A stretch of 60,936 nucleotides of DNA from an uncultured Bacteroidota bacterium. GTDB taxonomy: Bacteria > Bacteroidota > Bacteroidia > Bacteroidales > P3. Where the stretch lies: assembly GCA_902771735.1 (NCBI GenBank), contig CACXXO010000014.1, positions 1 through 60,936 of the forward strand, read 5' to 3'. This document shows, in pieces, positions 1,033 to 42,320 of the stretch; position 1 is the first letter of the stretch; each line of letters begins with the position of its first letter. Both the position numbers and the translations under genes were made by a program. The notes beneath the pieces were generated by a model. The model was not told the origin of the DNA, searched no databases, and saw only the letters and a program-made list of their open reading frames with translations.

Positions 1033-1070
1033 GGCAAAAACAGGTCTGGAGAAGGCTGTTTTTGCCCTGT
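1033..1070 (+). terminator. Probable terminator after aroQ
   Basis: Perfect 11-bp inverted repeat (GGCAAAAACAG at 1033-1043 and its complement at 1056-1066) with a 12-base loop. The T-tract behind it is short, so the call is moderate. Confidence 0.55.
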
Positions 1071-1093
1071 TTCTAATTGCTTGATTCTTAATA

Positions 1094-1180
1094 CCAACTC
1101 CGTATCAAGTCCGACTGAAGTCCGAGTCAACTCCGACCCATCTCCGACCGCGGTCGGAGATGGACCGGAGTTGACTCGGT
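1094..1180. repeat. Intergenic 11-bp-period array with mirrored arm (copy A)
   Basis: TCCG recurs at 1099, 1110, 1121, 1132 and 1143, exactly 11 bp apart. Then the complement CGGA recurs at 1155, 1166 and 1177 at the same spacing. Together they form arms of 27 bp with two mismatches around a CGCG centre. Bases 1099-1163 are identical to the reverse complement of 42104-42168. It ends about 20 bp before the -33 box of the next gene. Confidence 0.9.
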
Positions 1181-1198
1181 GATAGTACGCATAAAATA

Positions 1199-1328: not shown

Positions 1329-3419
1329 ATGGCAAAGATTGACAAACTTATCTCCAAAGGGAACTACAATTGGAAGTTCAGCACAGTTGGCGGCGTGACG
1401 CGCGTCAATATTGAGACAGGTGACGATGTGGCCCACCTCAACGAGCTGGACCAAAAACTGTGGACCGTGTTGAGCTGTCCTGTGAAAGGTCTCGAATTCG
1501 ACGAGAAGACCCTCGCACTGCTCGACTCCAACAACGACGGCCGCATCCGTGTGGGCGAGGTGGTCGCTGCCTCGCAGTGGCTCACCAAGGTGTTGAAAGA
1601 CATGAACTACCTGCTCGAAGGCAAGGACACCATTGACTTTGCCCAGGTGAAAGACGACACCGACGAGGGCAAAGAGGTGCTGGAGAGCGCCAAGCTCATC
1701 CTCAAGCAGTTGGGCGTTGAGAAGGAGAGCATCACGCTGGGCGATGTCGACGAGTATATGGCTGGATATGAGGAGAAATGCAAGGCTGAGTATACTGCCG
1801 CCAATCCCGACCCCTTCGAGCCCCCCTACGGCGAGAAGAGCGACGACGCCGAAGCCGCCGTGAACGCCCTGCGCGCCAAGGTGGCCGACTACTTCATGCG
1901 TTGCAAGCTTGTCCAGTTTGACGAGGCGGCCACCGCAGCCCTCGATGTGCAGGTGGAAAAGATTGCCGCTATCAGCGACAGCAACCTTGCCGACAATGCT
2001 GCCGAGATCTCCAACTATCCCTTGGCTCGTCCCGTCAAGGAGGCCCTGCTGCCTTTGACGGGCGGCATCAATCCCGCCTGGCAGGCGTCGTTCGCCACGC
2101 TGAAGACGCTGGTGCTGGATGTGGACTTTGCCGGCAAGGAGAGCATCAGCGAGGAGGAGTGGAACGGTGTGCTGGCCAAGGTGGACGCCTATACGGCTTG
2201 GAAGGCCGCCGGCGAGACCGCCATGAATGAGGCTGTGGCCGAGATGCTGAAGACTCACGGCGCCGCCATCGAGCCTGTGGAGAAGCTGCTGCGCCTCTGT
2301 CGCGATTTCTTCAAGCTGCTGCGCAACTTTGTGGTCTTCAAAGACTTCTATAACCGCACTCCCGGAACGGAAGCCATCTTCCAGGCTGGTGTGCTCTATA
2401 TCGACCAGCGGAGCTGCGAGCTCTGCGTGAAGGTGAGCGATATGCCCAAACACCTGGCCACCGCCGGCAAGAGCGGCCTCTACCTGCTGTACTGCCATTG
2501 CGTCAGCAAGGTGCTGGGCAAGGAGATGGACATTGCCGCTGCGTTGACCGACGGCGACGTGAAGGATCTCCACGAGGGCAAGAACGCCGTCTTCTACGAC
2601 CGCGCCGGCAACGACTGGGACGCCACCATCACCAAGATTATAGACAACCCCATCTCCATCCGTCAGGCTTTCTGGAGCCCCTACCGCAAGTTTGGCAACT
2701 GGGTGACCGAGAAGATCAACAAGAACGCCCAGGAGAAAGAGGCCAAGCAGTTTGAGAACATGACGGCCAAAGCCGACGAGACGAGTGCCAATATCACTAC
2801 CAAGCAGGACGAGGCCGCCGCTGCCGCCGCCAAGACGGAAGAGAAGAAAGCCCAGATGTTCGACATCGCCAAGTTTGCCGGTATCTTTGCCGCCATCGGC
2901 TTGGCCCTTGGTGCCATCGGCGCCGCATTGGCCACGCTGGGAGGCTTCATCACCGACAAGTGGTACAACATCATCCTGCTCATCGCCGCCGTTGTCATCT
3001 TCATCTCCGGCCCGTCGATGCTGCTTGCCTGGCTGAAGCTGCGCAAGCGCAACATCGGCCCCCTGCTGAACGCCAACGGATGGGCCATCAACTCGATGGT
3101 GAAGATCAACACCACCTTCGGCCAGACGCTGACGGCTATGGCCAAGTATCCCAAGGTGGTGGGCAAAGACCCGCTGGCCGACAAGAAGATGGCTTGGTGG
3201 AAGAAATGCCTCATCTGGCTCGTCATTCTCGCCGCCCTGTTCGTCCTCGGCTTCAAGCTGACGCAGCACCGCTGGGTGTGGGAATCCAAGCCCGTCGAGG
3301 TGGAAGAGGTGGTCGCCGAAGAGGCGGTTGTCGAAGAGGCCGCCGCAGTCGAGGAGGTCCCCGTGGTTGTGGACGAGGCTGCCGAAGAAGCTCCAGTGGA
3401 AGAAGTTGCCCACGAATGA
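1329..3419 (+). CDS. Large membrane protein with EF-hand-like loop, unknown function
   Basis: I do not recognise the family. The 696 residues (from ATG 1329; an upstream TTG at 1299 is in frame but lies in the leader) have four parts. The first is a soluble N-terminal region of about 500 residues with a DSNNDGRIRVGE loop (around 67-78 from ATG 1329), which fits a calcium-binding EF-hand or dockerin-like loop. The second is an Ala/Lys/Glu-rich coiled-coil-like stretch. The third is three hydrophobic segments: two close together (roughly 510-570) and one near 635-650. The last is a C-terminal tail of about 45 residues made almost only of Glu, Val and Ala. There is no signal peptide, so the N-terminal domain is probably cytoplasmic. 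Its stop overlaps the next start (ATGA), so the two genes are likely co-transcribed. Confidence 0.8.
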   Translation: MAKIDKLISKGNYNWKFSTVGGVTRVNIETGDDVAHLNELDQKLWTVLSCPVKGLEFDEKTLALLDSNNDGRIRVGEVVAASQWLTKVLKDMNYLLEGKDTIDFAQVKDDTDEGKEVLESAKLILKQLGVEKESITLGDVDEYMAGYEEKCKAEYTAANPDPFEPPYGEKSDDAEAAVNALRAKVADYFMRCKLVQFDEAATAALDVQVEKIAAISDSNLADNAAEISNYPLARPVKEALLPLTGGINPAWQASFATLKTLVLDVDFAGKESISEEEWNGVLAKVDAYTAWKAAGETAMNEAVAEMLKTHGAAIEPVEKLLRLCRDFFKLLRNFVVFKDFYNRTPGTEAIFQAGVLYIDQRSCELCVKVSDMPKHLATAGKSGLYLLYCHCVSKVLGKEMDIAAALTDGDVKDLHEGKNAVFYDRAGNDWDATITKIIDNPISIRQAFWSPYRKFGNWVTEKINKNAQEKEAKQFENMTAKADETSANITTKQDEAAAAAAKTEEKKAQMFDIAKFAGIFAAIGLALGAIGAALATLGGFITDKWYNIILLIAAVVIFISGPSMLLAWLKLRKRNIGPLLNANGWAINSMVKINTTFGQTLTAMAKYPKVVGKDPLADKKMAWWKKCLIWLVILAALFVLGFKLTQHRWVWESKPVEVEEVVAEEAVVEEAAAVEEVPVVVDEAAEEAPVEEVAHE

Positions 3420-4497: not shown

Positions 4498-4533
4498 TTT
4501 GTAAATAAAAGCAAATCAGCACCTGAGAGCCAT

Positions 4534-4609
4534 CAACTCTTACTCCCCTCTTACTTCTCTCTTACTCCTCCCTTAGTCCTCCCTTTTTCTGGTAAGAGTT
4601 AGGAAGGGG
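4534..4609. repeat. Intergenic 11-bp-period array with mirrored arm
   Basis: CTTACTCC-like units occur with the central A at 4542, 4553, 4564 and 4575, exactly 11 bp apart; a fifth degenerate unit follows. An inverted arm (GGTAAGAGTTAGG) begins at 4591. It lies between the terminator above and the aspS promoter. Unit sequence resembles the 20056 array in reverse orientation. Confidence 0.8.
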
Positions 4610-4712
4610 AGAGGAGACCGATAACAGGTGGTTTTGACCGGTGGGGTTGTAGTCGGATAGGTAGGGCCGGGAGAAAAAAAAATAATTGTTCGCCGGGTTG
4701 TTGTACTTTTCT

Positions 4713-30115: not shown

Positions 30116-30280
30116 TGGGGATTCTTGTTTGTGTTTAATAAATCTTTTTTTTGTATTTTATAATAACGCGCACGAAACAATAATATTGTCCGAGGGTTTA
30201 TTTTTCCCTCACCAAACGGCATTTTTTTAACATTTTGCCCCGAAATGATGAAAGAAAGCGTAACTCATTGTACCTGATAG

Positions 30281-30345
30281 GTGTTAACTACCTACCAACT
30301 CCTTACCAACTCCCTACCAACTCCTACCACGGTAGGTGTTGACAG
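30281..30345. repeat. Intergenic 11-bp-period array with mirrored arm
   Basis: TACCAACTCC starts at 30293, 30304 and 30315 (11 bp apart), then TACCAC at 30325 closes into a short palindrome CTACCACGGTAG. TAGGTGTTAAC before it recurs as TAGGTGTTGAC after it. The gap 30116-30455 otherwise holds only the mutS -7 box. Confidence 0.8.
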
Positions 30346-30424
30346 GGTGGGGAAGGGGTGTTGATTTTAACATTTTGTTTATAAAAACTTGAGAGGGTTC
30401 GACCGGCGTGTGAGAAAAAATGTG

Positions 30425-33188: not shown

Positions 33189-33261
<73 letters not shown>

Positions 33262-33286
33262 CAGGTCTCCAAAATCAGAGAGAAAG

Positions 33287-33369
33287 GCTCTGGTGGTGGA
33301 ATGGTAGACACGAGGGACTTAAAATCCCTTGCCCGCAAGGGCGTGTGGGTTCAAGTCCCACCCGGAGTA
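33287..33369 (+). tRNA. tRNA-Leu (TAA)
   Basis: 83 bases with the long variable arm (GCCCGCAAGGGC) of class II tRNAs, anticodon TAA, T-loop TTCAAGT. The terminal acceptor pair is G-T. Confidence 0.93.
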
Positions 33370-33389
33370 CCGAAGCGCAAGAACCGCAT

Positions 33390-33462
<73 letters not shown>

Positions 33463-33570
33463 CAAAAAAAGAGTAATTTGAAATGCTGCAGCAGCGGCAA
33501 AGCCCATGTCCGAAAAGATGCCTCCCCAGAGGCCGATGCACGTTGCTGGAACACAAGCGAAAGAGAAAAT

Positions 33571-33643
33571 GTCTTGGTAGCTCAGCTGGTAGAGCAATTG
33601 ACTCTTAATCAATGGGTCCAGGGTTCGAATCCCTGCCAGGACA
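33571..33643 (+). tRNA. tRNA-Lys (CTT)
   Basis: 73 bases, acceptor GTCTTGG/CCAGGAC, anticodon loop CTCTTAA giving CTT, T-loop TTCGAAT. The 108 bases before it hold no recognisable gene. Confidence 0.95.
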
Positions 33644-33650
33644 CTTATCG

Positions 33651-33724
33651 CGGGGTGTAGCGCAGTTGGCTAGCGCGCCACGTTCGGGACGTGGAGGCCG
33701 GAAGTTCGAGTCTTCTCACCCCGA
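33651..33724 (+). tRNA. tRNA-Pro (CGG)
   Basis: 74 bases, acceptor CGGGGTG/CACCCCG, anticodon loop TTCGGGA giving CGG. Confidence 0.95.
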
Positions 33725-33757
33725 CACAAACCCTCGCAATTGTGCGACCCGCCGAAG

Positions 33758-33830
<73 letters not shown>

Positions 33831-42055: not shown

Positions 42056-42091
42056 AATATTTTTTTTGTCCGAAAACCATGTCATCACCGT

Positions 42092-42176
42092 ACCTCCTCC
42101 GACCCATCTCCGACCGCGGTCGGAGATGGGTCGGAGTTGACTCGGACTTCAGTCGGACTTGATACGGATTTGGTGC
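42092..42176. repeat. Intergenic 11-bp-period array with mirrored arm (copy B)
   Basis: CGG recurs at 42121, 42132, 42143, 42154 and 42165, exactly 11 bp apart. The left arm (CTCCGACCCATCTCCGAC) mirrors the right perfectly over 18 bp. Bases 42104-42168 are the exact reverse complement of 1099-1163. It lies between two divergent promoters; the gap 41985-42364 holds nothing else recognisable. Confidence 0.9.
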
Positions 42177-42320
42177 TAAGAATCAGTTAGTTATAAATGC
42201 TGTTTTTTGAAGTTGGGAAAGGGGTTCGATGGAGATGTGTAAAATACTGTATTCTATGCTGTTAGTGTAAAAAAAGAAAAAAAATCTCCTTTTTGGGGCC
42301 GATAGTTCATTTTTTCTTCG

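What the first reader, a model, noticed from the sequence alone, without database searches (positions are those of the whole stretch)
1094..1180. Mirrored 11-bp-period array, with a 65-base identical copy inverted 41 kb away
TCCG recurs every 11 bp five times and its complement every 11 bp three times, around a CGCG centre. Bases 1099-1163 equal the reverse complement of 42104-42168 without a mismatch, although both lie between unrelated genes. An exact 11-bp (one helical turn) period on both arms suggests a site read on one face of the helix, or an RNA with stacked arms. I do not recognise it as a known REP, BIME or MITE.
Basis: seen in the sequence. Interest (0 to 1): 0.75.

Follow-up and report, generated by a model that had tools for sequence, protein, structure and literature searches.

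The report
Evenly spaced mirrored 11-bp DNA arrays
The odd repeat is one of about 120 intergenic DNA elements built from 11-base steps that lie roughly every 11,000 bases along the chromosome of an uncultured Bacteroidales bacterium; related species build theirs from quite different 11-base words, which suggests that the geometry rather than the letters matters.

Summary
A model of the element finds 121 places in the host genome. Anatomy: conserved head, five 11-nt units, a dyad, then inverted 11-nt units. (1) The period is fixed but the unit is not: species of the genus, and loci of one genome, use unrelated 11-mers, sometimes joined in one 11-nt register. No 11-nt array appeared in 20 kb from each of 20 genomes outside the genus. 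(2) Spacing is regular: of 92 neighbour spacings none is below 5 kb, and permutations over intergenic sites never reproduced this in 450 kb. It recurs in G021. In three further genomes arrays of unrelated units also keep apart. (3) Divergent gene pairs are favoured. REP/RAYT is not supported; Rho fits only part of the arrays. Best reading: an architectural or topological chromosome mark read by geometry. The reader protein is unknown: curvature, GC-phase and gyrase/HU tests gave no support. A separate heptamer repeat class also exists in these genomes.

The parts
1073..1194 (+). Array element 1 (type A): head 1073-1094, five TCCG units 1095-1150, dyad at 1150/1151, inverted units 1151-1180
   Evidence: (134.1 bits; it is also one of the 21 rows from which the model was built)
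42073..42194 (-). Array element 2 (type A), holding the 65-base exact inverted copy 42104-42168
   Evidence: (134.9 bits; also a row of the model)
30252..30373 (+). Array element 3 (unit CAACTCCCTAC / CAACTCCTTAC type), between divergent genes; not a row of the model
   Evidence: 50.3 bits; lag-11 score 30 of 44
4501..4622 (+). Array with another unit (about TTACTCCTCTC), lag-11 score 35 of 44 at 4531; the type A model scores it only 15.9 bits
20036..20091 (-). Array of the same other unit (TCTTACTCCCC/TCTTACTCCTC) on the minus strand, between divergent genes, lag-11 score 27 of 44
1033..1066 (+). Terminator-like inverted repeat (11-bp arms, 100% complementary) before element 1
   Evidence: I4

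Best explanation
These are members of a genus-restricted class of intergenic DNA elements: arrays of 11-bp units, often mirrored about a dyad, laid along the chromosome at roughly 7-14 kb. SHOWN by computation: fixed 11-nt period, changeable unit sequence, frequent dyad, intergenic position, regular spacing that holds also between arrays of unrelated units in the samples examined, excess at divergent gene pairs. INFERRED: since unrelated sequences behave as interchangeable members of one spacing system, the elements work as architectural or topological marks of the chromosome that are recognised by geometry (period and dyad) rather than by one sequence motif. A wrapping or bridging protein, or cruciform extrusion under negative supercoiling, would then mark or limit loops or supercoil domains of about 10 kb. 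Units can drift or be replaced in register while position and period are kept. Which protein reads them is not known and no step of the mechanism was tested.
For: Period: among 122 intergenic regions of at least 90 nt in 450 kb of the host, 41 reach 26 of 44 at lag 11, 0-7 at lags 5-10 and 12-21 (lag 22, the harmonic, 27); at 24 of 33 all 33 lag-11 arrays are intergenic. Unrelated units in the genus: 20 arrays in 13 of 20 genomes (one N-run artefact dropped), 26 more in 400 kb of four genomes, 17 more in 385 kb of four further genomes. Different units in one register and mirrored in G022. Dyad score of at least 9 in 63% of 79 arrays, 1.3% after shuffling. Spacing: 0 of 92 below 5 kb, 25% expected below 4 kb; P=0 of 4000 in each of six intergenic-site permutation settings; G021 2 of 78 below 5 kb against 32% expected, minimum of 3000 simulations 15%. 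Unrelated-unit arrays: in the host, adding three such arrays lowers the CV from 0.43 to 0.33, two of them falling in long gaps; in G011, G022 and G046 minimum spacing 3.3 kb, pooled P=5e-5, mean CV P=0.009. Shape peaked, not just truncated: P=0.004 against a shifted exponential. Divergent pairs: 16 of 35 against 16 of 109 tandem, z=2.9 after adjusting for length. Orthologous intergenic regions hold arrays of unrelated units in different species, e.g. G011, G001 and G015; G022 and G046; G000 and G046.
Against: Units show no excess curvature (Fisher P 0.97) or GC first harmonic (P 0.99) over letter-permuted units, so a bend or GC-phase reading has no support. A weak common motif after free rotation and strand choice (P 0.017) and a TA excess (41 against 24.5) hint at some sequence reading. 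Not every genome fits well: G002 has only 44 model places and its exclusion is not significant alone (simulations also reach 0 below 5 kb); the CVs of G011, G022 and G046 are not significant singly (0.19, 0.06, 0.08). The window array at 4531 is only 3.5 kb from element 1. About 37% of arrays lack a strong dyad. Orthologous-site agreement is modest (7 both, 15 one, 38 neither of 60 pairs, Fisher P 0.03, pairs not independent). HU/IHF and GyrA C-terminal repeats do not differ between array-bearing and array-less genomes. Everything rests on draft genomes and a home-made gene caller.
Confidence: 0.42

Rival explanations
1. A self-propagating miniature element (REP- or MITE-like) whose insertion avoids targets near an existing copy (target immunity). 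The 11-bp arrays would be transposase binding sites and the spacing a by-product of immunity.
For: Dispersed, similar copies in one genome; presence and absence at orthologous sites (G000 against G045 and G021); conserved asymmetric head in type A; an exclusion zone of about 5 kb.
Against: PF01797 absent from the host and from G018 and G028, which have 56 and 58 model matches. PF05621 (TniB) gives in the host only one weak match (21 bits, 32.4 with neighbours) inside an 867-aa frame, with like matches in 8 of 10 genomes including array-less ones; I take these for AAA proteases (recalled). MuB, IstB and other transposase families were not searched. Arrays of unrelated units also keep apart. No clean target duplication was seen at the sites compared.
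Confidence: 0.25
2. Minisatellites made by slippage at hairpins, without function; 11 nt is set by the copying machinery.
For: Units within an array are alike, arrays grow and shrink by 11 (111, 122 and 133-nt matches; a long run of CGACCTYAACC in G015); mirrored arms fit hairpin-templated change; heptamer arrays also occur in these genomes.
Against: Does not explain regular spacing over many kb, exclusively intergenic position (33 of 33, while only 8 of 24 heptamer arrays are intergenic), or the excess at divergent pairs.
Confidence: 0.13
3. Rho-dependent terminators or transcription insulators: cytosines every 11 nt as rut site, the dyad as pause hairpin.
For: RhoTermPredict asks for a 78-nt C>G stretch with cytosines every 11-13 nt followed by a hairpin (passages), which type A fits by eye; in 12 of 16 tandem intergenic regions the C-rich strand is the transcribed sense; Rho is present in the host.
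Against: Units such as TATTACGGTAG or TTGTACGATAC are not C over G, and perfect hairpins hide a rut site. Highest frequency is between divergent genes, where no upstream gene reads in. Rho is found in 77 of 80 genomes of the order, while the arrays are not. RhoTermPredict itself was not run.
Confidence: 0.08
4. Uptake or packaging signal spread by molecular drive (as DNA uptake sequences are), even spacing reflecting the length of transferred fragments.
For: Species-specific dialects, intergenic inverted pairs and even spacing resemble what I recall of uptake sequences (recalled, not tested).
Against: Several unrelated units share one genome and one spacing system, which a single receptor would not give. 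No competence or transfer genes were searched.
Confidence: 0.07

Closest known systems
REP / BIME elements and REPINs (GTAG- and CGTC-tagged palindromes)
   Same: Intergenic, palindromic, over 100 copies in the genome, several families per genome
   Different: About 120 bp instead of 20-40; built of 11-bp units; no GTAG or CGTC tag in the conserved columns; PF01797 absent from the host; favours divergent pairs, whereas REPs lie mostly between unidirectional and convergent genes (abstract of PMC3733652)
BrickBuilt minisatellite MITE of Porphyromonas gingivalis
   Same: Bacteroidales, intergenic tandem short units between a leader and a tail
   Different: 23-nt unit, 19 copies, 84-991 nt long, terminal inverted repeats like those of insertion sequences (passages of PMC4596501)
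Gyrase cleavage motif / strong gyrase sites
   Same: About 130 bp, symmetric, arms periodic at 10.75 bp without fixed sequence; BIME-2 bound by gyrase (passages of PMC6379681)
   Different: Here the arms usually abut instead of flanking a 36-bp core, and GC phasing is not enhanced over permuted units
Rho utilisation (rut) sites
   Same: C-rich stretch with C every 11-13 nt and a following hairpin (passages of PMC6407284)
   Different: Many arrays are not C-rich; divergent regions preferred
DNA uptake sequences (recalled)
   Same: Short motif, dialects, inverted pairs, even spacing
   Different: Several unrelated words in one genome in one spacing system

Membership tests
REP / REPIN | RAYT (PF01797) transposase in the genome | tested here: not met
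   0 matches in the host; also 0 in G018 and G028 with 56 and 58 element matches; 40 of 59 genus genomes do have it. The host draft is 96% complete.
REP / REPIN | GTAG or CGTC tag at the foot of a 20-40 bp hairpin | tested here: not met
   By eye on the 21-row alignment: no conserved GTAG or CGTC beside the dyad
REP / REPIN | Mostly between unidirectional and convergent genes | tested here: not met
   16 of 35 divergent, 5 of 21 convergent, 16 of 109 tandem regions
MITE | Terminal inverted repeats and target duplication | tested here: inconclusive
   Head and tail differ in type A; at sites with and without an array the flanks are too diverged to define ends
BrickBuilt | 23-nt direct repeat | tested here: not met
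   Period 11, harmonic 22; 23 not raised
Rho rut site | C over G with regular C on the transcribed strand | tested here: inconclusive
   Met by type A by eye; not by several other unit families; the published program was not run
Strong gyrase site | Two symmetric arms with enhanced GC phasing around a central cleavage region | tested here: not met
   No excess W/S harmonic in 33 units; most dyads have no 36-bp core. Gyrase binding itself not testable here
DNA uptake sequence | Preferred uptake of DNA carrying the word | not testable with these tools
   Needs an experiment
Known RNA family | Match to Rfam | tested here: not met
   Only tRNAs match in the window at gathering thresholds

The most novel reading that the evidence does not exclude
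A bacterial chromosome carries a ruler: geometry-coded, sequence-free marks (11-bp-phased, mirrored arrays) set at about 7-14 kb, whose letters differ between species and between loci but whose period and spacing are kept, defining loops or supercoil domains.
Probability: 0.35. Interest if true: 0.92.

Novelty: categorically new. Interest (0 to 1): 0.82.

Why it matters
If true, it would be a DNA signal defined by helical period and symmetry instead of by sequence, repeated at a set distance along a bacterial chromosome. Bacterial supercoil domains of about 10 kb are known as statistical averages (recalled), not as fixed sites; here candidate boundary sites could be deleted or moved one by one. 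Even under the rival reading (an element with target immunity that acts across unrelated sequences), the mechanism would be unusual.

Tried and rejected
REP/RAYT: no PF01797 in the host. Mobile cargo: the G013 contig with two inverted copies 10 kb apart holds ordinary-looking chromosomal reading frames (by eye). Rfam: only tRNAs in the window. Rho: fits type A only. Intrinsic curvature, GC or purine-pyrimidine phase: no excess. Common motif: weak, P 0.017 with 120 permutations. HU/IHF: 2-4 copies in all 10 genomes tested. GyrA C-terminal repeats: 5-6 in 9 of 10, including array-less G020 and G026; none found in array-rich G011. TniB: only weak matches. Alternating orientation of neighbours: 35 of 61 (G000), 33 of 50 (G021), 4 of 7 (G002); together 72 of 118, about P 0.01 by my own arithmetic; G021 C16 alternates 10 of 10 but C39 is all minus; suggestive only. 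Phase of array to promoter: n=6, P about 0.03, too few. Degenerate arrays in the gaps of C1: none seen at 58-80 kb, one weak at 3.8 kb. Heptamer arrays: at 24 of 33 the 20 genus stretches hold 35 lag-7 arrays against 20 lag-11 arrays, and 7 against 0 outside the genus; in G035 lag 7 (13) and lag 9 (8) outnumber lag 11 (3). They are a different class, often inside called genes (16 of 24 in the host), and were not followed. One search examined lags 8-15 only.

Rows dropped or chosen: R1 was built from 21 of 25 oriented copies (L003, L004 missed by a pattern, L021 and L030 left out). One search scored 150 of 1048 first-look candidates, so weak places are not all listed; (full search of 450 kb) added five places to the list used. 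Places within 300 bp (400) were merged. Contig lengths not known were approximated in the simulations. In one search some weak opposite-strand rows were not typed. In one search one weak G011 array (87.7 kb) was left out, two arrays in one intergenic region were merged (G022, G046), and arrays seen but not were added. One lag-11 hit in G007 was a run of N. One search used 33 units and one search used 29, picked by hand. Literature searches; none showed such a system; most subscription papers are not held.

Full report
1. The observation. The two copies exist as described: five TCCG at 11-bp steps, two CGGA and one CGGT on the other arm, and a 65-base exact inverted block. TCCG at three 11-bp steps occurs 14 times in the window, up to one mismatch allowed, against 0.45 expected.

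2. A family in the host genome. A nucleotide search of the host draft (2.29 Mb, 37 contigs, 96% complete) gave 52 matches, both strands counted. I aligned 21 copies without gaps over 122 columns and built a covariance model, R1. It gave 150 matches in the host, the limit of what the search scores, out of 1048 candidates; with five weaker places from a full search of 450 kb these merge to 121 places. Consensus: head TAACTGnCTGATACTTAGTACCA, then units of the type CAASTCCGAYY at exactly 11 nt, a dyad ACC-NN-GGT, then inverted units. Changes of G in TCCG to T or C are matched on the other arm in several copies (both sides changed and paired in 5 of 15 pairs). Copies of 111, 122 and 133 nt differ by one unit.

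3. The period is fixed, the letters are not. In 450 kb of the host I called genes with a simple codon-usage script and scanned intergenic regions for self-match at every lag. Of 122 regions of at least 90 nt, 41 reach 26 of 44 at lag 11, 27 at lag 22, and at most 7 at any other lag tested (5-30). Apart from type A there are CAACTCCCTAC, TTACTCCTCTC (window 4531 and 20036) and CCTTCTATGAT arrays. In 20 other genomes of the genus, 20 kb each, 13 hold such arrays, 20 in all after dropping an N run, with many unrelated units. Longer stretches added 26 arrays in G011, G022, G046 and G035 and 17 in G014, G015, G017 and G040; G020 (100 kb) and G026 (80 kb) had none, nor any R1 match. In G022 different units follow each other in one 11-nt register and are mirrored (CCCTACGGCCG then TTCTTCAGTAG). 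Outside the genus, 20 genomes (19 other families of the order and one second genus of the same family, 20 kb each) gave none. With R1, 34 of 59 genus genomes (host included) have matches. An exact pattern of type A finds named relatives among uncultured Bacteroidetes/Bacteroidales MAGs: RUG12038, RUG11969, RUG12409, RUG156, UBA2939; the host itself carries no name here. Control against over-reading: heptamer arrays are more numerous than 11-nt arrays in the genus stretches when genes are included (35 against 20) and also occur outside it (7 against 0); in the host only 8 of 24 are intergenic, whereas 33 of 33 lag-11 arrays are.

4. The dyad. Of 79 arrays 63% have a strong dyad close by, 1.3% after shuffling letters. 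Centres differ between families (two free bases in type A, tetraloop-like GAAA or GATT in G046, longer in G011).

5. Spacing. The 121 places give 92 neighbour spacings. None is below 5 kb (smallest 5.1); uniform placement predicts 25% below 4 kb (5000 simulations, smallest 12%). In C1, C6 and the window, where I had genes, drawing the same number of intergenic regions at random never gave so low a coefficient of variation (0.43) or so few close pairs in 4000 draws, for six choices of eligible regions and weights. Adding the three arrays with other units lowers it to 0.33: two fall into long gaps (C1 178 kb, window 20 kb), one (window 4.5 kb) lies 3.5 kb from its neighbour. The distribution is peaked (46% at 9-14 kb, 15% at 5-8 kb) and differs from a shifted exponential (P 0.004). 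G021: 107 places, 78 spacings, 2 below 5 kb, median 11.8 kb. G002: 44 places, median 24 kb, smallest 5.0 kb, not significant alone for exclusion. In G011, G022 and G046, 30 spacings between arrays of mostly unrelated units (24 pairs unrelated) have a minimum of 3.3 kb; intergenic permutations reach this with P 5e-5, and the mean CV with P 0.009, though single-genome CVs are not significant. An AT-rich stretch of C1 (about 5-27 kb) has no array.

6. Position. All 38 places in C1, C6 and the window lie between called genes. Divergent regions hold arrays in 16 of 35 cases, convergent 5 of 21, tandem 16 of 109; the divergent effect holds after adjusting for remaining length (z 2.9), the convergent one not (1.4). 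In tandem regions the C-rich strand agrees with transcription in 12 of 16. Orthologous regions: at C6:104357 the array of RUG12038 has the same place and number of units with other unit flavours; at C6:10556 G035 has none and G046 has two arrays of unrelated units; at C1:80553 the host has an array while G046 and G022 carry theirs in the next region, 1.4 kb away. Over 60 region pairs 7 have arrays in both, 15 in one, 38 in neither (Fisher P 0.03, not independent).

7. Mechanism. What must be explained is a fixed 11-bp step with free letters, a dyad, and mutual spacing across unrelated letters. A sequence-specific factor or one transposase does not explain the last. I therefore favour a mark read by geometry. 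Cruciform extrusion between divergent promoters is an alternative that needs only complementarity. Neither is tested.

8. Known families. See the membership table. Papers: passages only of PMC4596501, PMC6379681, PMC12393610, PMC6407284; outline and abstract of PMC3733652; all others as search listings. The nine literature searches showed no such system.

9. Verdict. The descriptive finding (11-bp arrays, free letters, regular spacing) is strong for the host and G021 and supported in three further genomes. The architectural reading is an inference at 0.42; target immunity is the main rival at 0.25.

Noticed in passing
G000 C1 about 5-27 kb (loci L064, L065): AT-rich stretch (GC 0.36-0.45 against 0.54-0.59 around it) with poorly called genes and no array: probably a foreign island.
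   Followed up: partly
G000 C1, C6, window; G011, G022, G035, G046: Heptamer repeats (such as AATTCTC or GAAAATT) are a second, separate repeat class, often inside called genes; in the 20 genus stretches they outnumber 11-nt arrays (35 against 20).
   Followed up: partly
G021 C16 and C11; host C6 and C23: Neighbouring elements often alternate in orientation (G021 C16: 10 of 10 steps), but over all contigs the excess is small (72 of 118) and G021 C39 is all one way.
   Followed up: partly
L085 (G007), upstream of the orthologue of window gene 1329-3419: A 22-nt periodic array (CCGCCGTTTCGAAGAGAGTCAT-like), twice 11, read by eye.
   Followed up: no
L061 (G013 contig 29, 13.3 kb): The only 4 model matches of G013 (two places, both strands) lie on this one contig; it may be a foreign contig in that draft genome.
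   Followed up: partly
window 1329-3419: A 696-aa protein conserved in 48 of 59 genus genomes at E 1e-20 has no Pfam match at 0.001.
   Followed up: no
window 33189-33830: Six tRNA genes in a row.
   Followed up: no
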